Of a stretch of 64,000 nt of DNA, positions 4,901 through 56,032 are shown in pieces. Every line of letters starts with the position of its first letter. Position 1 is the first letter of the stretch. Both the position numbers and the translations under genes were made by a program. The stretch comes from a virus. Below the pieces are notes generated by a model. That model did no database searches. It had not been told where the DNA came from and worked only from the letters and a program-made list of their open reading frames with translations. The stretch is taken from positions 1 to 64,000 of the IMG/VR virus record IMGVR_UViG_3300004369_000001. The stretch is one strand, 5' to 3'.

Positions 4901-7900
4901 CGGGAGGAATTGTGGTTGCAGGGATGGAGTTGCCCTCGGAGCTGGGAGCAATGACATCTCTAGCAACGTTGCTGTTTGTGCCAGACTTATTTAACTCGAT
5001 CACCTTCGGGGTGATGTATGCACTCACATCCACACCGTCAAAGAAGCAATAGATTCTGGATCTGGGCTTCATTCTATAAACATCAAATGCCAGGTTTCTG
5101 GAGCGAATCCAGGGCACTGCTGTTTGGGACAGCATGGAGTCACCCATGGATCTACGCTCAATCCTGGGCACAACTCTTGTGCGAATACCTTGACGAGACT
5201 GGTTGGATCTCACTTGGAAAGTGCGTCTATCGTGAATGAATTCCAGACCTCTACCTCTGGTGCCAACCCAACCACCACCGCCATGGGTGCTACCAGATCT
5301 ATTGATGATTCTGTCAGTTGAAACCAGAGATTCGGAAGACCAGTTAGTCCTCCAACCACCCCATTGAATAGGTGCAAATCCTGTATTGGGATCAATATTC
5401 AATTCTCTAGAAACACTGGAGAAGTCACCTTCGACGTTTTCCACACGAGCTGGGAGACGGTTTGTTTCCAACCAGTCATCGGAAGAGGGTGTCAAGTCAA
5501 TACGACCAATAAAGGTAAAGACGTTAAATGGGTTGACGTTTTCGCTTCTAGATGCATATGGTTGCTTAACCACCTCAACACTTTCATAGGGAAGCATCGC
5601 AATATTTGCTGGGGTAACAACAATATTCTGAGACTTCTGAGTATTGATTTGTAGGGGGACGTTAGATGTATAGTGGGACGGACGAAGAATACCCTCTTGG
5701 AAATCGAGAGAGCACTTGTAGTCAGCACTATTGACATCACCAATCTTATGATCGGTAAAGTCATCCACCACAAATCCATTCTTCAAACGATCGAAACCGT
5801 TTTCGTCATAAGATCTTGTAGCATCTGTTTGCACTTCAAGAAGTGAAAGTGCTGTATAGTATTCGACGTTATTGATTCTCTTCTCCAGATCACCAATATC
5901 CTTCATCGTATAACGACGAATTACTTCCTGGGTGATGATGGTATCCCTTTGGGGATCATACATATACGGTTTGTGCTTGAAGATCGCCAGGCACATTGCA
6001 TTCTGAATATTTTCTGGCTCTTCGGGATTCTCAGCAGAGATACCGTATTGTAGTCTTAGTTTGTTGTCGTGGGTGAGGAATAGTTTATCTGTCCTTGGCA
6101 GATAGTATTCGTAGTCGCAACGGAATTCCGTTTCTGCTTTAGGAATATCAAACAGAGTAGCAACTGCAGCATTTCCAGCACCTTGATTTGTTGTGCTGAA
6201 TACACGAGCATCGAAATCGAGGGTTGCACAAGTCACCTCAAATGGACCTGTCACCGTGCCGTTACCTGTCGCCAATTCTCCAACTGCAGGACGGAAGTCA
6301 ATTTGGTCTCTAACATTCTTAGTAGATCCCTGCAGAATAGGTGCAGGAATTTCATCGAAGTCGATACCAGTATATGACTGTGCAGAGAAATAGTCACCAG
6401 ATGCTTCATGGATGAAGTAGTCGAAGACAATCATCAATTGTCTGGTCGGTGGAGTAACTCCAGGTTGTCTGACCAGTTTGGAGACGTTATAGAAGAAAGG
6501 TGTTTGACCAGAATTGAGAGTGAAGAGGTCAGTAACAACCTTACTACCCTTAACTACAGATCCATCAGCGTCGTCGATAGTTGCTCTCAGGACATTTCCA
6601 TCAGAGTCTTCACCGATGATTCTTTCGCCAGGATTGAATTCGATATTATTGAGGTTGACATTATAAAGACGCAGTGTTGCGTTAATGAAGCTAACAACAG
6701 TTGCTCTAGCACCAGATGTCTCGCCAGTGATAACAGTGCCAGGAGCAAAGAAAACTGCTTCACTCAGCACACTATATGGAATTTGAGGTGCTCCGTCAGT
6801 TTCCGATTCATATACGGCGTGAATCTTGTAGACATCGTTTAGACCGAAGGAGATCTCCTGGTCTTCGATACGAGTGCCATATAGGTTGCCATAAAGCAGA
6901 CCATACTTTTGAATATCGTTATTCTTACTGGTGCGAGTGACTTTAAGGGCACGCATCTTAGATGCGGTCTTAATCTTTCTGCTCACGATATTCTTAGATA
7001 CGAGAGCAGTCAGTTTTATTGTTGTCACTCCAGTCAAACCATCAATGGTCATAGACTGGCGATTAGCACCGAAGGTAACTGTTAGCGTGCCCGCTTCATC
7101 CAGTGCTTCCAGATCCAAGTTGTCGCCAACAGCGTATGAAGATCCAGACTGTGCAAGAATTGTAAGTTGATAGTTTTCATCATCGAGTGAAGCAAACTGC
7201 TCAGATTCTGGCAGTGCCACAGTCAAACCGCCAGACACAACTGTCTTATTTGTGAATGTGCGGTAGACGAAGAAAGATTCGTCGCTTAGAGACTTCATCG
7301 ACTCTCTGGGGAGATCGACGCTCAACTGACCCGAAGGTTGAGTTGTGTTGAAGACAAACGGTCTATATCTAACAACGGTGGTGTAATTGCCATCTGCAAT
7401 GCTGCCTTTAGTTAAAGCAGTATCGAGCAAGGCTGTTTGTGCCTGATAATCGAATACTGGAGCGCCACCAACGTTATTGCCTGATGTGTGGTTGATAGTA
7501 GACTTTGTGATCTTCTTAACAATGAGACTTGTGTCACCTTCAAATCCAGATTCACCATCTGGGGAAAGCACGTCTCCAGGACGAAGATCTTCTTCAAACT
7601 TAGATCCATTGAGACCAGTAATAATGGCACCAGACTGGTCAACAGTTATGGTTGATCCACGCACAGCCTGGGCATCATTCAGTAGAAGGTTAGCAACAAA
7701 CGAGACGGCACTGTTGCTGTTATAACCAACAGCGGATCTTGCATCAGTTAACTGATAACTGAAAACAGCGTTAATTGTGCCGACAACTCTACCGTCCTTG
7801 GTGATAACTTCACCATCGGTAAAGATACCTGATACTTGCTCAAGACCAACATAAGTGCCACTTATATCTGTAGTGGCAAATCCTCTAGCACCAGAAATTC

Positions 7901-47035: not shown

Positions 47036-47461
47036 TCAGGCAGCAAGAGGAAGAGCAGACTCACCAAGATTCAGACCAGAATAAAATAACACAACCTCGA
47101 AGGATTGAGTGCTGTTGTTATACTGACGCACATACCAAACATGATCCTTTTGAAATACACCTTCGCCAGCGATTGCATTAGCGTCGCAGATAGCATTGAG
47201 GCGTGATTTGGTAGTGTTGGATTGCCAACCACCATCAAACAGTTGCACACAATCATCACTCACAGTGGCGATATGATTGCCGTGCAGATATACACGAGAC
47301 ACATTATCTTGCTCATCAAATTGCACAGAAGTGTTGCCAGATTGCCAGTTGATAGAATCAGCGATTGCCTGATTCATTTGCTTTTCAATCTTACGCATGG
47401 TTTTGGAGTTAGAGTGAATGTGGAAGGTGCGATCCCCCCCACGACATTGAATATAAGGCAT
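47036..47461 (-). CDS. Conserved cyanophage protein, hypothetical
   Basis: 141 aa from MPYIQCRGGDRTFHIHSNSK, with NTSVQFDEQDNVSRVYLHGN and LFDGGWQSNTTKSRLNAICD. The frame stays open upstream to 47551, but that extension overlaps the promoter-like cassette and a separate 54-aa gene, so I start at 47461. I believe the MPYI...GG...H...T/S...K motif marks a recurrent phage family of unknown function. Confidence 0.75.
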   Translation of the reverse strand: MPYIQCRGGDRTFHIHSNSKTMRKIEKQMNQAIADSINWQSGNTSVQFDEQDNVSRVYLHGNHIATVSDDCVQLFDGGWQSNTTKSRLNAICDANAIAGEGVFQKDHVWYVRQYNNSTQSFEVVLFYSGLNLGESALPLAA

Positions 47462-47508
47462 TTTGAGGGTCTGTGCCAGAAAAGTGGACACTGTGCCAAC
47501 TGGCACAA
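47462..47508 (-). promoter_or_regulatory. Regulatory cassette copy (partial), upstream of the 141-aa gene
   Basis: The minus strand has TGTGCCAGTTGGCACA (7-bp inverted repeat), then GTCCAC and GGCACAGACCC, aligning with the upstream parts of the promoter cassettes at 48231, 49391, 50451, 51030 and 53925. No -10 box lies before the ATG; a TATATT occurs just inside the coding sequence. Either a degenerate copy or an operator alone. Confidence 0.4.
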
Positions 47509-47510
47509 TT

Positions 47511-47675
47511 TTACTTTCTAAACCTCGCGCAAACATCATCATAGGATGCACCTACAGGGATTTGTTTGCAAAAACGCTCCATCTTACTGTCCTGCATTTT
47601 GTTGACTGAATCAATAGCGGAGACGCCAATCATGCCACCAATGACAATAACAAATGTACCGAGGAAGATTCTCAT
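47511..47675 (-). CDS. 54-aa membrane-anchored micro-protein
   Basis: MRIFLGTFVIVIGGMIGVSA forms an N-terminal hydrophobic segment (signal anchor), followed by a polar tail with two Cys (FCKQIP, DVCARF) outside the membrane. The ATG overlaps the stop of the 42-aa gene (ATGA). Third of three consecutive tiny membrane proteins. Function unknown. Confidence 0.65.
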   Translation of the reverse strand: MRIFLGTFVIVIGGMIGVSAIDSVNKMQDSKMERFCKQIPVGASYDDVCARFRK

Positions 47676-47800
47676 TTGTTTAGTGGAGAATTGTAGAAAC
47701 GGCGGAAAGCAGTGACAATAATAATGGCAGTGCTAATAACGCCAACGAGACCAAGAAAAGTCGTTGCATCGCCAGAGAAAGAATAGGTGTCAGGTGTCAT
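47672..47800 (-). CDS. 42-aa single-pass membrane micro-protein
   Basis: MTPDTYSFSGDATTFLGLVG and the following VISTAIIIVTAF give one transmembrane helix with a short positively charged C-terminus (RRFYNSPLNK). Start and stop both overlap neighbouring genes (ATGA). No family recognised. Confidence 0.6.
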   Translation of the reverse strand: MTPDTYSFSGDATTFLGLVGVISTAIIIVTAFRRFYNSPLNK

Positions 47801-47883
47801 CGGTAGATTGCTTTGAAGAAGAATACAATGCCAGCAACTGTAATAATACCAGTTGCAATCAGTGAGAGATTAACTATATCCAT
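47797..47883 (-). CDS. 28-aa membrane micro-protein
   Basis: MDIVNLSLIATGIITVAGIV, then FFFKAIYR: essentially one transmembrane helix. The ATG overlaps the stop of the upstream 114-aa gene (TGATG) and its stop overlaps the next ATG, which is strong positional support for a gene this short. It resembles the small single-helix subunits of photosynthetic complexes only in size; no homology is claimed. Confidence 0.5.
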   Translation of the reverse strand: MDIVNLSLIATGIITVAGIVFFFKAIYR

Positions 47884-48227
47884 CAGGCAGAGATCAGAGA
47901 TTCAAATGCATCACGATGTTGCTCTGCAAAGATAGCAACACATGGCGCGGTGTTGATATACTCAACGATGAAATCTTTGCACTCGGCAACAGTATCGAAT
48001 CCCGCAATGCGCGGATAGACCCACGCAATAGATCCATCAGCAAGTACTTGACTACGACGTGCATTTACACGATAGTTTCCCTCATCCTCAGAGTAATCTG
48101 CAGTGATAGTGAAAGCAGCGAGACGATTCTCACCCACCCAGATAGAATCTTCCTCAACCCAAATATCTTCACAATAGGCGACAGTATCCAGGCGCTTGGT
48201 GTAATCGATGGAGATGGCGTTGGTCAT
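47883..48227 (-). CDS. 114-aa hypothetical protein
   Basis: Starts MTNAISIDYTKRLDTVAYCE, with DIWVEEDSIWVGENRLAAFT, YRVNARRSQVLADGSIAWVY and a helical C-terminus (AECKDFIVEYI). Predicted mostly beta, then alpha. I begin at 48227 because the longer frame (to 48314) would run through the conserved promoter cassette, whose TATACT box is 20 bases upstream. No Shine-Dalgarno sequence; the leader carries ACAACAAACAAAAC. First gene of a coupled operon with three micro-membrane proteins. Confidence 0.7.
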   Translation of the reverse strand: MTNAISIDYTKRLDTVAYCEDIWVEEDSIWVGENRLAAFTITADYSEDEGNYRVNARRSQVLADGSIAWVYPRIAGFDTVAECKDFIVEYINTAPCVAIFAEQHRDAFESLISA

Positions 48228-48230
48228 TCG

Positions 48231-48309
48231 TTTTGTTTGTTGTGAGAGTATATTTGCACAGATCGGGTGCCTGTGCTCATTTAGTGTGCAGGTTGTCTGA
48301 CTGTCACAT
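48231..48309 (-). promoter_or_regulatory. Promoter cassette copy A
   Basis: Minus strand, in order: AACCTGCACAC, GAGCACAGGCACCCGAT, CTGTGC and -10 TATACT (48252-48247). GCACAG-N9-CTGTGC is a perfect inverted repeat ending 3 bases before the -10. It is nearly identical to copies B (49391) and C (50451) and overlaps the 3' end of the upstream gene. Confidence 0.7.
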
Positions 48310-48513
48310 GCCATTCAGAAAGTCTGCCATTGCCTCATTATATTCTTCTTCAGTGAAGAAAGTGCGACCATGAATAGTCTTAGGAAACTGCTGTTTTGCA
48401 GCAGGTCGGTAACACTCAGCGACGGTGAATCCCTTCTCTTGAATGTAATCGGTGTAAACGTTTTGCATTGCGTTGTTGTAATTAGAAAACCACTTTGCGT
48501 CGTATTTTGGCAT
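48304..48513 (-). CDS. 69-aa hypothetical protein
   Basis: MPKYDAKWFSNYNNAMQNVY at the N-terminus, then FTVAECYRPAAKQ and a helical C-terminus (TEEEYNEAMADFLNGM). Start chosen at 48513 for its TGATG overlap with the preceding stop; the ATG just before it (48516) is equally possible. Its stop lies in the upstream end of promoter cassette A. Function unknown. Confidence 0.65.
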   Translation of the reverse strand: MPKYDAKWFSNYNNAMQNVYTDYIQEKGFTVAECYRPAAKQQFPKTIHGRTFFTEEEYNEAMADFLNGM

Positions 48514-48773
48514 CATGCCGCTGCCTGCTCCCACACGTTGTAAAACATGTCCCAAGCGTAAGTATCAGCAACGAAGGTCTGAATGTCACACTGATCGCAT
48601 ACCCAATCGTATGCCATATCTGCATCAGCGTTAGTATCAATCACGAAATCGTAGAGACCTTCGATTGCACTCTGAAAGTCCTTATCCTCAGCGAGAGAGA
48701 CAAAGAACTTGCCAGTTTCGTTGTCGATCATGATGCGCTTGCCAGTGATAGAGAAAGAAGGAGAGTGAGTCAT
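48513..48773 (-). CDS. 86-aa acidic hypothetical protein
   Basis: Starts MTHSPSFSITGKRIMIDNET, then FFVSLAEDKDFQSAIEGLYD and acidic, Trp-rich sequence (AYDWVCDQCDIQTF). The frame is open to 48848, but the -10 box TATAAT (48801-48796) lies within that extension, so translation should begin at 48773. No Shine-Dalgarno sequence; the leader reads CCAAACAAAGCAA. Function unknown. Confidence 0.7.
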   Translation of the reverse strand: MTHSPSFSITGKRIMIDNETGKFFVSLAEDKDFQSAIEGLYDFVIDTNADADMAYDWVCDQCDIQTFVADTYAWDMFYNVWEQAAA

Positions 48774-48855
48774 TTGCTTTGTTTGGTGTCCTACCATTAT
48801 AAGCACGGCATCGGGCGACCTGGGGGCATCAGTGTGCCAGTGCGTCAACTGGCAT
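48774..48855 (-). promoter_or_regulatory. Promoter cassette copy D (divergent)
   Basis: Minus strand: TGCCAGTTGACGCACTGGCA, then CCCAGGTCGCCCGATGCCGT, GC and TATAAT (48801-48796). It shares the CAGG-N3-CCCGAT-N3-GTGC order with copies A-C and has a perfect -10 box. The upstream end covers the stop codon of the 83-aa gene at 48845. Confidence 0.6.
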
Positions 48856-49096
48856 CATTATGTTGAAAGTATGCTGCAATGATTCGCTCATCATCCTCAT
48901 TCAAATCATCGAATGGAAGAATACTCTTACACAGATCTTTCTTTGCATCATCAATACAATCATCCAGTTGATCGTAGAGATTAGTATAATCGAAATTGCG
49001 AGCGATATATTCTGCAATCAACGGCACATCATCCTCAGGGATATCATCAAAGTTGTCGAGAATGTAGTTGTTGATGTTGATTGTGAGTTTTGCCAT
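48845..49096 (-). CDS. Small acidic hypothetical protein
   Basis: 83 aa, MAKLTININNYILDNFDDIP at the N-terminus, strongly acidic (DDCIDDAKKD, LNEDDERI) and mainly helical. It lies 35 bases after the 49132-49383 gene, probably in the same transcript from promoter copy B. No family recognised. Confidence 0.7.
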   Translation of the reverse strand: MAKLTININNYILDNFDDIPEDDVPLIAEYIARNFDYTNLYDQLDDCIDDAKKDLCKSILPFDDLNEDDERIIAAYFQHNDAS

Positions 49097-49131
49097 TATT
49101 CTAGTGAAAGAATGATTTGAAGTAATTTATA

Positions 49132-49383
49132 TCAGCAAGCGAGACACATTGCAGAGTTGAAGAGTTGCGGTTCGGTGTGCATATCAGTCACAACATAACC
49201 ATAACCCTCAACGCGAGAATCTACTTCACGTTGGAAATCTTTCTTGTTAATGTAACGCTTGGACTGTCGTGCATTGCAGAAAGTAACAATCTTCAGAATG
49301 TAGCGAGTGCTAATGTCACCATCGGCAAACTTGACGGGATAGAAGTCAACAACCATGTTGGCATCTTTGGAGGTGAGTTGCAT
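49132..49383 (-). CDS. 83-aa hypothetical protein
   Basis: MQLTSKDANMVVDFYPVKFA at the N-terminus, then STRYILKIVTFCNARQSKRY and a C-terminus with two Cys (NSAMCLAC). The pattern suggests a small alpha/beta protein. First gene after promoter cassette B, whose TATAAC box is 23 bases upstream of the ATG. Function unknown. Confidence 0.7.
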   Translation of the reverse strand: MQLTSKDANMVVDFYPVKFADGDISTRYILKIVTFCNARQSKRYINKKDFQREVDSRVEGYGYVVTDMHTEPQLFNSAMCLAC

Positions 49384-49390
49384 TTGCTCT

Positions 49391-49468
49391 CGTTTCTTTG
49401 ACCTTGTTATATTTGCACAGATCGGGTGCCTGTGCCCATTTTGTGTGCAGGTTGTTGGATTGGCACAC
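49391..49468 (-). promoter_or_regulatory. Promoter cassette copy B
   Basis: Minus strand: TGTGCCA, AACCTGCACAC, GGGCACAGGCACCCGAT, CTGTGC, -10 TATAAC (49411-49406), then the leader AAGGTCAAAG. GCACAG-N9-CTGTGC is a perfect inverted repeat. The stretch from GCACAGG to the leader is identical to copy C (50451-50528). Confidence 0.75.
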
Positions 49469-49502
49469 TACCCTAGTTTGGGTGCTGCTGGTGGTATGCT
49501 GC

Positions 49503-49676
49503 TCAATCCCACGGGTCTCGTGCCTGAGATCCCTGTCCCTGTCTTGCCTCAAATCGCTCTTTTTCGATGATTCTAGCAAGCACGACCTGATCATCCCGCC
49601 CGCACCTGAAACCATACAAAAAACCGATCTTATAACCCAAGGCGAGACCTATGACAGTGAAAGCAACACTTAGCAT
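49503..49676 (-). CDS. 57-aa membrane-anchored protein
   Basis: MLSVAFTVIGLALGYKIGFL is an N-terminal transmembrane segment; the tail (CGRDDQVVLARIIEKERFEA) is charged and probably helical in the cytoplasm. The ATG is close to the stop of the 62-aa coiled-coil gene. A different frame of this DNA is also open, but this one has the coupling and a clear membrane protein pattern. Confidence 0.6.
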   Translation of the reverse strand: MLSVAFTVIGLALGYKIGFLYGFRCGRDDQVVLARIIEKERFEARQGQGSQARDPWD

Positions 49677-49679
49677 GAT

Positions 49680-49868
49680 TCAGTAAGATTGATCGAGTTT
49701 CTTGTGATCGTTGTTTGCGAGAGATAATTGCCTCTCAAACTCAATACGCAATGAGATAAGATGCCTCCTCAAGAAATCCTTGAATGTTACATGTGGATCA
49801 TCAATTTGCTTCTCAATCTCATCAATTTGTGCAAGAATTGTTTCTAATGTTTGTGATGTATCAGACAT
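49680..49868 (-). CDS. 62-aa coiled-coil protein
   Basis: MSDTSQTLETILAQIDEIEK at the N-terminus, then helical sequence throughout (FLRRHLISLRIEFERQLSLA). Overlaps the upstream gene by 8 bases. Function unknown; coupled to the downstream membrane protein. Confidence 0.65.
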   Translation of the reverse strand: MSDTSQTLETILAQIDEIEKQIDDPHVTFKDFLRRHLISLRIEFERQLSLANNDHKKLDQSY

Positions 49869-50061
49869 AGAGATTATTCATGAAAGTCCATTCATACTCG
49901 CTATCTTGAGGATCAACACCATCAACAATCCACTCTTCACATACAGCAATGGCATCCTCATTCTTTCCTTCCTTAACAAGATTAGTCAAGCGAAGGAAAT
50001 AGGTTTCACCCATGTTTTCGATGCTGGTTTCCTTCTCGTTGATGTCGTAATCCATGATCAT
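49861..50061 (-). CDS. 66-aa acidic helical protein
   Basis: MIMDYDINEKETSIENMGET at the N-terminus. The pattern YFLRLTNLVKEGKNEDAIAV, then CEEWI resembles one TPR-like helical hairpin. The ATG overlaps the stop of the 67-aa gene (ATGA). Function unknown. Confidence 0.65.
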   Translation of the reverse strand: MIMDYDINEKETSIENMGETYFLRLTNLVKEGKNEDAIAVCEEWIVDGVDPQDSEYEWTFMNNLYV

Positions 50062-50261
50062 TTAGAATGTTGAAGTCGAATGATTTTTTGAAGCAAATCA
50101 GTGTGTGGAGTATTCTCAACGAGACCGCGAAGAATAGCGAGATCACACTTATTTAACTTTGTAATGAAGATATCTTCATCGAGATCTTCATCTTGTAGAG
50201 TTAGATCTGGATTCTCCCAAAAGTCGATCCAGTCACTATCATTTGCTGCAGAAGTGATCAT
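50058..50261 (-). CDS. 67-aa acidic hypothetical protein
   Basis: MITSAANDSDWIDFWENPDL at the N-terminus, acidic middle (DEDLDEDIF), helical C-terminus (CDLAILRGLVEN...LLQKIIRL). Start at 50261 overlaps the preceding stop (TGATG) and has GGAG 14 bases upstream; the frame could extend to a TTG codon at 50279. Confidence 0.65.
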   Translation of the reverse strand: MITSAANDSDWIDFWENPDLTLQDEDLDEDIFITKLNKCDLAILRGLVENTPHTDLLQKIIRLQHSK

Positions 50262-50446
50262 CAGAAAGGATTGCTCCAACGCTCATATTGTGAGAGAGTG
50301 ATATAACCCTCTTTGCACAGTTTATCAGTAAAGTCATTCCATTCAGTGCGCTTCCAAACTACATCATTCTTGAGTTTGGGATGTGCATTAGTGATGACTT
50401 TCCAGTTATACTTAAACTGCTGAAGTGCTTGTGCTTTGGTAGTCAT
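50261..50446 (-). CDS. Conserved small phage protein
   Basis: 61 aa: MTTKAQALQQFKYNWKVITN, then KRTEWNDFTDKLCKEGYITL, SQYERWSNPF. I recognise this as a frequent marine-phage family (ending in a W/Y..W.NPF motif) without assigned function. First gene of a five-gene coupled operon after promoter cassette C. Confidence 0.8.
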   Translation of the reverse strand: MTTKAQALQQFKYNWKVITNAHPKLKNDVVWKRTEWNDFTDKLCKEGYITLSQYERWSNPF

Positions 50447-50450
50447 GTCG

Positions 50451-50528
50451 AATTGCTTTGACCTTGTTATATTTGCACAGATCGGGTGCCTGTGCTCATT
50501 TGGTGTGCAGGTTATTCAAGTGGCACAC
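50451..50528 (-). promoter_or_regulatory. Promoter cassette copy C
   Basis: Minus strand: TGTGCCA, AACCTGCACAC, GAGCACAGGCACCCGAT, CTGTGC, -10 TATAAC (50471-50466), then AAGGTCAAAGCAATTCG directly before the ATG at 50446. It overlaps the stop codon of the 50512-50754 gene. Confidence 0.75.
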
Positions 50529-50754
50529 GACCATCCGTGATTAGATTCAGTAGAGTCTGTGCGCGTGATCGATGTAGATCATGGTATGCAATCGCACCCT
50601 CAATAGCAGACACTAACTCATCATAACATTGCCGAGGATTTGTATCATCGGAGTTGAGATAATCATCGATTGCCTCTTCAAGACGTTGGCGACGTTGCTC
50701 AGAATACTTCTTATCCACTTCAGATTGCAGGTGGAAGGTGTAAGCGTCAGTCAT
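50512..50754 (-). CDS. 80-aa helical hypothetical protein
   Basis: MTDAYTFHLQSEVDKKYSEQ at the N-terminus, then RRQRLEEAIDDYLNSDD and CYDELVSAIEGAIAYHDLHR. Almost all alpha. ATG start at 50754 preferred over an in-frame TTG at 50760. It follows the 90-aa gene by 2 bases and its 3' end lies in promoter cassette C. Function unknown. Confidence 0.7.
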   Translation of the reverse strand: MTDAYTFHLQSEVDKKYSEQRRQRLEEAIDDYLNSDDTNPRQCYDELVSAIEGAIAYHDLHRSRAQTLLNLITDGRVPLE

Positions 50755-50756
50755 AA

Positions 50757-51029
50757 TCAAACAAGTTGCAGTTGAGGGGCATTTGTAACTTTGAAAGTGT
50801 TACCATCAGTGCCGATGGAAACATTAGGGGGGAGAATGGAGTTGTTGTCAATAACCTCCCAAGTGTTGTCAGTCTCCTTGATGACAGCGAAACCAAAGAC
50901 ACCAGCAGTAGGCATCATAAACAAACCGTGCTTTTCTGCCTGCCTAGCAGATGCAAACCCACGGGCAGTGATAGTCCAGGTGATACCAGACTGATCACCA
51001 CCGAAGTATGCACAAATGAAGTCAGTCAC
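50757..51029 (-). CDS. 90-aa hypothetical protein, GTG start
   Basis: Begins (V)TDFICAYFGGDQSGITWT with a GTG at 51029; the longer ATG frame from 51068 would include the TACAAT -10 box and is unlikely. Features: RGFASARQAEKHGLFMM, FGFAVIKETDNTWEVIDN and a beta-rich C-terminus. Expressed from promoter cassette E; the leader ACAAACAAAGCAAC has no Shine-Dalgarno sequence. Function unknown. Confidence 0.7.
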   Translation of the reverse strand: MTDFICAYFGGDQSGITWTITARGFASARQAEKHGLFMMPTAGVFGFAVIKETDNTWEVIDNNSILPPNVSIGTDGNTFKVTNAPQLQLV

Positions 51030-51114
51030 GTTGCTTTGTTTGTTTGTTACCTGAGTATTGTAGGGCACAGCGGGTCACTGGGCGCTTGGAGTGTGGAGGT
51101 TTGTAGAGTGGCAC
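51030..51114 (-). promoter_or_regulatory. Promoter cassette copy E (divergent)
   Basis: Minus strand: TGTGCCACTC, AACCTCCACAC, GCGCCCAGTGACCCGCTGTG, CC, -10 TACAAT (51062-51057), leader ACAAACAAAGCAAC. The order of elements matches copies A-C with a few substitutions and slightly shorter spacing. Confidence 0.6.
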
Positions 51115-51116
51115 AA

Positions 51117-51287
51117 TCAACGATAGAGGGGCGATCGATTGAGTTGATAACCCTCACGCAATGCATGTATGATTATATTATCATACGAATGTGAGCGGAG
51201 AGGGATGTGTCGGTGCAACAAATAATCTTCACAATCTTCTGCTAATGCCTCTTTATCTTCGTGTGACATTGATTCGAGATCGATCAT
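51117..51287 (-). CDS. 56-aa hypothetical protein
   Basis: MIDLESMSHEDKEALAEDCE at the N-terminus, then DYLLHRHIPLRSHSYDNIII, HALREGYQLNRSPLYR. Helical N-terminal part; His-rich centre. It sits between the 177-aa oxygenase and cassette E and may be co-transcribed with the oxygenase. No family recognised. Confidence 0.6.
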   Translation of the reverse strand: MIDLESMSHEDKEALAEDCEDYLLHRHIPLRSHSYDNIIIHALREGYQLNRSPLYR

Positions 51288-51344
51288 TGGTTGTCTTCAA
51301 ACAGAAACACAGTCTACTCTATGTATGGACTTCAGCACCGAAAC

Positions 51345-51878
51345 TTAAGGATGATTTCGGATTTCAGGTGGGACACAGATTAGTCCTAGAGTGAGTCTAA
51401 CTCCTCTAGATGGTGGATTGCCCCAGTGATGCAAATGGGATGGAAATATCACCATTCTATTCTCTTTGAATGGTATCCTGTGCAGTGATTCAGTAGAATG
51501 ATCTGCAAAGATCAAATCACCATCAATACCCTCCACCATGTAAACTACACTCATTGGACCAATCTCATCAGCATCAGTATGCTCTTCAGACAATAGTCCA
51601 ACACTTTGAAAGTTTAACAGTGTGCGTTGCACTTTATATCCAGGCAACAGATCATCATCATGAGTAACATCAGCGTTGAGATATTCAACAAACCAATCAT
51701 ACTCAGGACCAACCCATCTTCCATTGGATACCATCATCGTCCCGAAGAATCTGCTCTTTTGATAGTTACCATAGGGTGAGTTTGTGAAGCGCACAGGATA
51801 CTCTAGAAGGCGCTGTGATGCCTCTGAAAGCATCCAGGTAGGGTATCTATCATCGATGACCTTAATTAGATCTTTCAC
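51345..51878 (-). CDS. Fe(II)/2-oxoglutarate dioxygenase
   Basis: 177 aa, prolyl-4-hydroxylase-like double-stranded beta helix. The HxD pair is in SEEHTDADE (about residues 98-101), followed by VVYMVEGIDGDLIFAD; the distal His and the 2-oxoglutarate-binding Arg are in FPSHLHHWGNPPSRGVRLTL. Substrate unknown. The N-terminus overlaps the stop of the 62-aa gene. It is separate from the main oxygenase island downstream of the helicase. Confidence 0.75.
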   Translation of the reverse strand: MKDLIKVIDDRYPTWMLSEASQRLLEYPVRFTNSPYGNYQKSRFFGTMMVSNGRWVGPEYDWFVEYLNADVTHDDDLLPGYKVQRTLLNFQSVGLLSEEHTDADEIGPMSVVYMVEGIDGDLIFADHSTESLHRIPFKENRMVIFPSHLHHWGNPPSRGVRLTLGLICVPPEIRNHP

Positions 51879-52063
51879 TTGAATCCTCCTCCTTTTGTCT
51901 TAGCATCAAGCACCTCAACATGTGATAGATGTTGTGGGAAGTTCCACCATGCTCTCATCACATCTTCATAATCATCTAGAATCTTGACACTACCATCGAC
52001 ACACCATACTTTATAACGATGTCGATCATATGGAGCATCTGATGTGCGTGTGAAGTGTGTCAT
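51875..52063 (-). CDS. Small conserved cyanophage protein
   Basis: 62 aa, MTHFTRTSDAPYDRHRYKVW at the N-terminus, then VDGSVKILDDYEDVMRAWWN and LSHVEVLD. To my knowledge a recurrent cyanophage family of unknown function. ATGA overlap with the oxygenase downstream and 4-base overlap upstream. Confidence 0.75.
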   Translation of the reverse strand: MTHFTRTSDAPYDRHRYKVWCVDGSVKILDDYEDVMRAWWNFPQHLSHVEVLDAKTKGGGFK

Positions 52064-52263
52064 TTGTTTTCTTCAATCAACCAATTATCATCTTGTGGAG
52101 CATCAACCCAAAACCAATAATCTGGGTTGTCCCATGCACTAACGAAGATGCGATTGCCCTTCTTGTGCTCTACTCTCACTTGGTTTTTGTTATTCAGATA
52201 ATTAGCAAGATCATTCCTTGCTTTTTCGCTGATAGGTATAACGGTGGCAGTATTTCTTAGCAT
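52060..52263 (-). CDS. 67-aa hypothetical protein
   Basis: MLRNTATVIPISEKARNDLA at the N-terminus, then NKNQVRVEHKKGNRIFVSAW and DNPDYWFWVDAPQDDNW. Basic first half and aromatic-rich second half; small beta-type fold likely. Overlaps both neighbours. Function unknown. Confidence 0.7.
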   Translation of the reverse strand: MLRNTATVIPISEKARNDLANYLNNKNQVRVEHKKGNRIFVSAWDNPDYWFWVDAPQDDNWLIEENK

Positions 52264-52499
52264 GGTGGTGGCATTGCGGTGAATGGTGTGGTGAGATCTT
52301 TATCAATCTCACTTCCTACTTTCTTTGCATTTATAGGAGAATGAATTGCTCCTGTTTTCTTCTTGATAAATCCCCACACAGTTTTAACTGGTTCAGTGGT
52401 ATAAACGTAGGGATAGTGATGATGTAACCACACAACATCGTAAGTCTTGTTAAACTCAGCGACGCTGTAATGATACCCATCGGGTGCCTCATGAATCAT
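52257..52499 (-). CDS. 80-aa hypothetical protein
   Basis: MIHEAPDGYHYSVAEFNKTY at the N-terminus, then DVVWLHHHYPYVYTTEPVKT, VWGFIKKKTG. The start at 52499 overlaps the methyltransferase stop (ATGA). Rich in Tyr and His; no family recognised. Confidence 0.7.
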   Translation of the reverse strand: MIHEAPDGYHYSVAEFNKTYDVVWLHHHYPYVYTTEPVKTVWGFIKKKTGAIHSPINAKKVGSEIDKDLTTPFTAMPPPC

Positions 52500-53335
52500 G
52501 TGAGAATTGTCAATAGGTGAGGTTTGCAAAGTTTAGCACGTTTCTGTGCCATTTCACAGTAAGTTTGATCAATCTCAAAACCAATAAACTTCCTGCCCTC
52601 TTCTATACACACCTGAGCAGTTGTGCCACTACCCATGAAAGGATCAAGCACCACATCATTCTTATCACTCCAGGTGATAATATGACCTCTTGCTAACTCC
52701 TCAGGCATGGTTGCAGGGTGTTTGTATGACTCTTTGGATGATTGTCCAAACCCACCGCTATTCTTAATCTTCCAAATGTTGGTCCTTACACCATATTCTC
52801 TGATTTCTTTGCTCTTCTTGCCTGGGTCATGCATTGTCCCATCCTTGCGCCTGGTTTTAGCATTTCCGAAGGAAGTATAACCTGCCCATGCATTTTTCTT
52901 ATCTTGGATAAGATTGATGGTCTTAGGTTTGCCCTTGGAGAGGATAAAACAATACTCAAAGATTTGAGTATATCTCACGCTATTAGGACCAGAAGCAAAT
53001 GCTGTGCCTGTCTTTTCATAGATCATAGTATCATGTAGACGGAGACCATGAGCATCCATAAAGTATAGGCACTGACGAAAACTACTACCAGTTTCACTAC
53101 CTTTTACCGTTGCGTCGTTGACATTCCACATGATAACACCGCCAGGTTTCAATACCCTGACGATGCTATCTGCTACCCTCTTGAATACCTCATGGTCCCA
53201 CTTGCTGCTGTCATTGTATGTCCGCAGGTCATCGTAGGGAGGAGAGGTGATCACTAGATCCACACTCTCCTCATCCATGAGTTGCATCCCATCGATGCAA
53301 TTCATCAGGTAAGTATCATTGAGCGAGAGTTTCAT
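52496..53335 (-). CDS. DNA methyltransferase (N6-adenine or N4-cytosine)
   Basis: 279 aa from MKLSLNDTYLMNCIDGMQLM. The catalytic motif IV TSPPY is at residues 30-34 and the AdoMet-binding motif I DPFMGSGTT at about 231-239, the order of beta-class amino-methyltransferases. VLKPGGVIMWNVND is another family block. It would methylate an exocyclic amine in a specific DNA sequence. It overlaps by 20 bases a gene for a probable PD-(D/E)XK nuclease, so the two may form a restriction-modification pair, or the enzyme may protect phage DNA. The frame extends to 53377, but that start has no support. Confidence 0.85.
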   Translation of the reverse strand: MKLSLNDTYLMNCIDGMQLMDEESVDLVITSPPYDDLRTYNDSSKWDHEVFKRVADSIVRVLKPGGVIMWNVNDATVKGSETGSSFRQCLYFMDAHGLRLHDTMIYEKTGTAFASGPNSVRYTQIFEYCFILSKGKPKTINLIQDKKNAWAGYTSFGNAKTRRKDGTMHDPGKKSKEIREYGVRTNIWKIKNSGGFGQSSKESYKHPATMPEELARGHIITWSDKNDVVLDPFMGSGTTAQVCIEEGRKFIGFEIDQTYCEMAQKRAKLCKPHLLTILT

Positions 53336-53921
53336 ATTCGGTGTGGATAAACTTGGTGGTGCTTCTGATTTTACCATAGATCACAGTAATGCAAGCAGCA
53401 TCATCTTTGTGGATCTGCAGTTTGCTGAAACCGTTGTTATTCTTGCCAGTCTTTGTAACGCTGTCAGTCCACCCAGTCGCCTCATTAGTGGCGAGGGAGA
53501 GGTCAACAATAGCAGCGAAACAACGAGGGAAGATGTTACCAACCTGCTGCACTTTGCAGACAAAGACCTTATCAACCTTAGTCTTGCTGTGGTTGTTGCC
53601 AGTAGCGAAGGATGAAGTATCCTGACCCAGTGTCAGTTTATTCTCCAACTCTTCCTGCAACAGGATAGCATCATAACCAGTAGTCTCTTCGGTGATGTAA
53701 TCAACTCCGAGATTCTTGGCAGCATCCTCTAGAGCAGGGTTGAAGATGTTGGCAAGCAGTTTAGTCTTGTCAACAGTATTCTCACCAAAATACTCATCGA
53801 GATCGCCATAACGACCGCCAGAGATGATGCTGAGACCTTTAGAAAGACGCTGGGTGGTGAGGTTGAGAGCGGCAGGAATCAGGCGAAAGAGTTGATCAGC
53901 GAGTTGTGCGTTTGTTGCCAT
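53316..53921 (-). CDS. Putative PD-(D/E)XK restriction endonuclease
   Basis: 201 aa. Residues 84-95 (DAILLQEELENK) have the spacing of a PD-(D/E)XK active site: D84 and E93-x-K95. Downstream, SFATGNNHSKTKVDKVFVCK and the IVDLSLATNEATGW segment fit the pattern of several type II endonucleases, where substrate and structural residues follow the ExK strand. The N-terminus is helical (AQLADQLFRLIPAALNL). It immediately precedes the methyltransferase, the classical arrangement for type II restriction-modification. Identity rests on motif and context only. Driven by cassette F. Confidence 0.55.
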   Translation of the reverse strand: MATNAQLADQLFRLIPAALNLTTQRLSKGLSIISGGRYGDLDEYFGENTVDKTKLLANIFNPALEDAAKNLGVDYITEETTGYDAILLQEELENKLTLGQDTSSFATGNNHSKTKVDKVFVCKVQQVGNIFPRCFAAIVDLSLATNEATGWTDSVTKTGKNNNGFSKLQIHKDDAACITVIYGKIRSTTKFIHTEYETLAQ

Positions 53922-53924
53922 TGA

Positions 53925-54004
53925 TCGAATTGCTTTGACCTTACTAATATACAGACAAAATCACCGTGCGGTGCAAATAGTGGACGGTTTGGCAACTGGC
54001 ACAT
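53925..54004 (-). promoter_or_regulatory. Promoter cassette copy F (divergent) before the nuclease gene
   Basis: Minus strand: TGTGCCAGTTGCC, AACCGTCCAC, then a different core, -10 TATATT (53951-53946), and the leader AAGGTCAAAGCAATTCGA, which is identical to that of cassette C. It overlaps the 3' end of the 66-aa membrane protein gene. Confidence 0.5.
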
Positions 54005-55623: not shown

Positions 55624-55649
55624 GGAGTGCTGGGCGCTTGTCTCCAGAT

Positions 55650-55655
55650 ATTATA
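55650..55655 (-). promoter_or_regulatory. Promoter -10 box TATAAT for the helicase operon
   Basis: The minus strand reads GTATAATATC, 27 bases before the helicase ATG and directly after the terminator stem-loop. No consensus -35 is visible because the terminator occupies that position; the leader contains GCGCCCAG as in cassette E. Confidence 0.55.
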
Positions 55656-55659
55656 CACG

Positions 55660-55683
55660 AAAAAGGGCACCCATAGGTGCCCT
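55660..55683 (-). terminator. Rho-independent terminator
   Basis: On the minus strand AGGGCACC, loop TATG, GGTGCCCT form a perfect 8-bp stem followed by TTTTT. It separates the 55703-56187 genes from the helicase operon. The upstream flank contains GACAGTCAACAGACTGGCAC, resembling parts of the promoter cassettes. Confidence 0.8.
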
Positions 55684-55702
55684 GTGCCAGTCTGTTGACT
55701 GT

Positions 55703-56032
55703 CTATCGTTTGTTTATATCAGGGAGCATATCATTCCCTGGGTGATCGTCAACAACTCCAGTATAGGATTTGCCATACTGTTTAATGGGTTCCATCTCTA
55801 CATCTTCCCATTGATGAGGGTAGATAACAATGCAACACTTGTTGACTCTATCAAATGCATGTTCGTCTTCAGTCTCATCCTTGCTGATGCATAGAGTGAC
55901 ATACTCATCTCCTACAAACTCGATATTGCCCTCAAAACCATTGAAACGGGCGCGAGCACCCTTCACAAAATACTTCATAATGTTTCTCAATTCAATAGCA
56001 GGACTATTACCGATTAGGAGTGGTGTTGTCAT
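55703..56032 (-). CDS. Conserved cyanophage protein, hypothetical
   Basis: 109 aa, MTTPLLIGNSPAIELRNIMK at the N-terminus, then YFVKGARARFNGFEGNIEFV, GDEYVTLCISKD and IVIYPHQWEDVEME. To my knowledge a widespread cyanophage family with a small beta-barrel pattern; function unknown. Overlaps the upstream 52-aa gene by ATGA and is followed by the terminator. Confidence 0.75.
   Translation of the reverse strand: MTTPLLIGNSPAIELRNIMKYFVKGARARFNGFEGNIEFVGDEYVTLCISKDETEDEHAFDRVNKCCIVIYPHQWEDVEMEPIKQYGKSYTGVVDDHPGNDMLPDINKR

What the first reader, a model, noticed from the sequence alone, without database searches (positions are those of the whole stretch)
47462..54004. Family of ~70-bp promoter cassettes dispersed before small genes
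Six copies (48231, 48774, 49391, 50451, 51030, 53925) and one partial copy (47462) share the order TGTGCCA, AACCT(G/C)CACAC, GCACAGG-N3-CCCGAT-N2-GTGC, -10 box. Copies A-C are almost identical although the genes they precede are unrelated. This points to a coordinated early regulon with a common activator or repressor site, spread by recombination as a mobile promoter unit.
Basis: seen in the sequence. Interest (0 to 1): 0.7.

Follow-up and report, generated by a model that had tools for sequence, protein, structure and literature searches.

The report
Shared early-promoter cassettes in a cyanophage
A virus of marine cyanobacteria carries about eight copies of a roughly 85-base promoter in front of small unrelated genes; the same promoter design occurs across related viruses and probably switches on their first genes together, and it appears to be copied and swapped between genes, although its core is probably already described.

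Summary
The cassettes are real. Read on the minus strand, they are one promoter design used throughout T4-like cyanophages (Kyanoviridae). It has a 24-25 bp imperfect dyad (TGTGMCA...TGNMCAC) whose right half starts 35-36 bp upstream of a strong -10 box. A -35 hexamer is optional, and a conserved start/leader (AGAGTCAAAGGA) follows. A motif model trained only on other phages finds copies P, A, B, C, E and F as the six best sites of the 107.8-kb contig. D and a missed copy H (before the helicase) are degenerate members. One relative's cassette matches 157 phage records, all named as cyanophage or Synechococcus phage. It was not found in a host genome (WH7803) above chance. A, B and C share 41-42 of 43 core bases while their flanks are unrelated; the same gene in other phages has a different spacer. 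A 98.7%-identical relative differs by one small gene inserted exactly at cassette H. These facts favour copying and recombination at cassettes, as in the T4 'PeSL' model. Early timing and an activator are inferred, not shown. From memory, Doron et al. 2016 reported a conserved novel early-gene element in T4-like cyanophages, very likely this one, but that paper could not be read here.

The parts
47398..47508 (-). Copy P: dyad halves 47499-47508 and 47484-47492, -10 TATATT 47450-47455; probable start codon near 47398 (Kyano_Gp96 gene)
   Evidence: 24.7 bits; coordinates; domain begins about residue 23 of the longer ORF
48228..48309 (-). Copy A: dyad halves 48300-48309 and 48284-48292, spacer inverted repeat 48256-48276, -10 TATACT 48247-48252; followed by the gene A start codon near 48227
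   Evidence: 29.9 bits; coordinates
48774..48857 (-). Copy D, degenerate: left half TGATGCCAGT 48848-48857, right half TGGCACA within 48833-48841, -10 TATAAT 48796-48801, start codon 48771-48773
   Evidence: sequence, coordinates; 17.2 bits only when read on the other strand
49384..49468 (-). Copy B: dyad halves 49459-49468 and 49443-49451, inverted repeat 49415-49435, -10 AAATAT 49409-49414 or TATAAC 49406-49411; gene conserved in 84 cyanophage records
   Evidence: 28.8 bits; coordinates
50447..50528 (-). Copy C: dyad halves 50519-50528 and 50503-50511, inverted repeat 50475-50495, -10 AAATAT 50469-50474 or TATAAC 50466-50471
   Evidence: 27.7 bits; coordinates
51030..51116 (-). Copy E: dyad halves 51107-51116 and 51091-51099, -10 TACAAT 51057-51062, probable GTG start 51027-51029
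   Evidence: 19.0 bits; coordinates
53922..54004 (-). Copy F: dyad halves 53995-54004 and 53980-53987, -10 TATATT 53946-53951; before the gene homologous to Syn9 gp61
   Evidence: 29.4 bits; coordinates; Syn9, S-RIM4, S-H35 and P-TIM40 have an element or a same-architecture sequence before the homologous gene
55624..55704 (-).
   Evidence: recombination boundary in a 98.7%-identical relative

Best explanation
These are copies of the early promoter of T4-like cyanophages, in a regulator-dependent form. A dimeric DNA-binding protein contacts the dyad (right half about -47 to -41, left half about -65 to -57, two helical turns apart, on the same DNA face). It helps host sigma-70 RNA polymerase at a strong -10 with an optional -35, so many small early genes fire together soon after infection. 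The cassettes double as short homology blocks. Recombination between them copies one promoter version to several genes and lets genes be gained or lost at cassette edges, as proposed for PeSL cassettes of other T4-like phages. Shown here: the architecture, its conservation, its restriction to phages in the collections searched, homogenisation within the genome, and one clean gene-content breakpoint at a cassette. Inferred: promoter activity, early timing, the bound protein and its sign (activator favoured over repressor).
For: A model trained on S-SZBM1, S-RIM4, S-H35 and S-RIM8 finds the sites here and in Syn9; Syn9 sites of 17 bits or more with a -10 in register all lie at 44.7-53.0 kb, among small ORFs. 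174 non-redundant cassettes, 109 of them independent of the search pattern: TGTG to -10 is 53 +/- 1 bp in 102 of 109, right half to -10 is 35-36 bp in 96 of 109. The TGTGNCA-N10-TGNCACA spacing dominates and the halves do not covary, as for a protein site and not a hairpin. P-TIM40 has perfect dyads. A -35 matching at 4 or more of 6 in 79 of 174 versus about 27 expected. 39 of 80 gene-B orthologues carry the element versus 0 of 73 control windows. 157 cyanophage records match one cassette. A, B, C identity with unrelated flanks; best other phage match 30 of 43. Breakpoint at H; block ends at 17 of 31 cassette starts versus 27 of 124 other starts.
Against: No transcription data for this phage. 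Half of the gene-B orthologues lack a recognisable element. No correlation between dyad strength and -35 quality (Spearman -0.12, p 0.12), which an activator model might predict. The binding protein is unknown. The block-end test uses related genomes that are not independent.
Confidence: 0.75

Rival explanations
1. The dyad is an operator for a phage repressor that shuts early genes off when middle transcription begins; the promoters themselves are ordinary host sigma-70 promoters.
For: Many cassettes have TTGA-type -35 boxes at the right spacing, so they could fire unaided. Sites were not found in the host above chance, as expected for a phage-made protein.
Against: The site lies wholly upstream of -40 at a nearly rigid distance from the -10; repressor sites usually overlap the core promoter and tolerate varied positions. 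More than half of the cassettes lack a good -35.
Confidence: 0.2
2. The near-identity of A-C is simple vertical inheritance of a conserved promoter, not copying between genes.
For: Cassette F and the helicase promoter are kept before the same genes in distant phages.
Against: Orthologous gene-B promoters in other phages have different spacers, while three unrelated genes here share one. One cassette-only homology block joins unrelated genes in S-RIM4 and S-RIM8.
Confidence: 0.07
3. The dyad is the site of a host transcription factor that the phage hijacks.
For: Early genes must be read before any phage protein is made, unless one is injected.
Against: The exact dyad occurs in 8 of 201 Cyanobiaceae genomes, about as often as the reversed control; WH7803 has fewer high-scoring sites than its shuffles. 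No NtcA, CRP, Pho or LexA consensus in any cassette.
Confidence: 0.2
4. The sites are RNA elements (hairpins in read-through transcripts, terminators) and not operators.
For: Spacer inverted repeats of 5 bp or more in 41 of 174 versus 20 with swapped partners; 12 of 57 hairpins have a T-run. Copy H has a textbook terminator.
Against: Most cassettes lack a hairpin or T-run; the dyad halves do not covary. Rfam has no match.
Confidence: 0.1

Closest known systems
Early-gene regulatory element of T4-like cyanophages Syn9 and P-TIM40 (Doron et al. 2016, ISME J 10:1437; content from memory, paper not held)
   Same: T4-like cyanophages; the element is present in both named phages before genes of the small-ORF region; abundant and conserved across T4-like cyanophages
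   Different: The published sequence and mapped starts could not be compared; the spacer repeats, within-genome copying and breakpoint evidence may not be described there
PeSL (promoter-early stem-loop) mobile regulatory cassettes of T4-type phages (Arbiol 2010; Comeau 2014; titles confirmed in the reference list of PMC4503421, details from memory)
   Same: Composite promoter and stem-loop sequences repeated between small variable genes, acting as points of gene exchange
   Different: Here the constant part is an upstream dyad; the stem-loop is present in a minority and rarely terminator-like. PMC4503421 states PeSLs are not dense in cyanophage S-PM2
T4 middle promoters (MotA box)
   Same: A phage-specific element upstream of a sigma-70 -10
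   Different: The element lies at -65 to -41, not -30; cyanophages lack motA and asiA (PMC2984593)
T4-type late promoter TATAAATA (gp55)
   Same: Phage promoter family in the same phages
   Different: No TATAAATA in any cassette

Membership tests
T4-like cyanophage early regulatory element (Doron 2016) | Carried by a T4-like cyanophage | tested here: met
   Nearest records are Kyanoviridae; helicase, methyltransferase and Kyano_Gp96 genes nearby
T4-like cyanophage early regulatory element (Doron 2016) | Same motif present in Syn9 and P-TIM40 | tested here: met
   Syn9 sites up to 30.4 bits; perfect dyads in P-TIM40
T4-like cyanophage early regulatory element (Doron 2016) | Identity with the published consensus | not testable with these tools
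   Paper not held
T4-like cyanophage early regulatory element (Doron 2016) | Downstream genes transcribed early | not testable with these tools
   No expression data for this phage; supplements not readable
PeSL cassette | sigma-70-type early promoter | tested here: inconclusive
   Strong -10, optional -35 at correct spacing; activity and timing not tested
PeSL cassette | Adjacent stem-loop | tested here: inconclusive
   Clear in H; inverted repeat without T-run in A-C; 41 of 174 cassettes versus 20 by partner swapping
PeSL cassette | Gene exchange breakpoints at the cassette | tested here: met
   Insertion boundary at H between 98.7%-identical phages; 17/31 versus 27/124 block ends, genomes not independent
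PeSL cassette | Sequence match to T4-type PeSLs | not tested
   Papers not held
T4 MotA middle promoter | MotA box near -30 | tested here: not met
   0 of 8 window cassettes, 4 of 174 others
Host NtcA, CRP, Pho or LexA site | Known consensus in the cassette | tested here: not met
   None in 8 window cassettes or 174 others

The most novel reading that the evidence does not exclude
Early transcription in T4-like cyanophages depends on an unidentified phage-made or virion-delivered activator that binds a 24-bp dyad with no host counterpart, and the same cassettes serve as recombination points that assemble the early ORFan region.
Probability: 0.3. Interest if true: 0.7.

Novelty: new member of a known kind. 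Interest (0 to 1): 0.42.

Why it matters
How T4-like cyanophages start transcription without motA, asiA or alt was described as unresolved in 2010 (PMC2984593). A precise, family-wide dyad with fixed spacing gives a probe for finding the protein that reads it. The cassette also marks genes likely to be expressed first, and offers a concrete recombination route for the fast turnover of small genes in the early region.

Tried and rejected
Rfam and tRNA scans were empty, so it is not a known RNA element. A hairpin reading of the dyad was rejected because its halves do not covary. A host regulon was sought and not found. A first breakpoint test was discarded as circular because short cassette-to-cassette matches create boundaries; it was repeated with long blocks only. 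A correlation of dyad strength with -35 quality was not significant. Gene A has no relatives in viral contigs by the pattern search. Papers on Syn9 transcription and PeSLs were not held.

Full report
What the window is. The window is bases 1-64000 of a 107,783-base virus record. Its nearest relatives are T4-like Synechococcus phages of the family Kyanoviridae: S-SZBM1, S-RIM4, S-H35, S-RIM8 and Syn9. The genes of the region lie on the minus strand, so the cassettes are read on that strand.
Noticed in passing
55624-55704 (-): Helicase promoter H combines a terminator-like hairpin (GGGCACC-TAT-GGGTGCCC-TTTTT) with TATAAT, so the upstream transcript may end where the next begins.
   Followed up: partly
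L318 (G202:C1) about 6026-6315 versus window 55687-55706: A 98.7%-identical relative has an extra gene of about 57 codons (MHNIIPRQQLTEWRHFE...) inserted directly upstream of cassette H; the window lacks it.
   Followed up: yes
47036-47551 (-): The start of the Kyano_Gp96 gene is probably mis-called by longest-ORF rules: the domain begins near the ATG at 47398, downstream of promoter P.
   Followed up: partly
L246, L248-L251, L262-L266 upstream of gene B: A group of gene-B orthologues lacks the element and instead has a conserved run like AAGTGTTCCAGTAGTGTAAG before the start codon; its role is unknown.
   Followed up: no
47883-48228 (-): Gene A, preceded by a near-perfect cassette copy, has no relative in viral contigs by pattern search but matches PHROG 36241.
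   Followed up: partly
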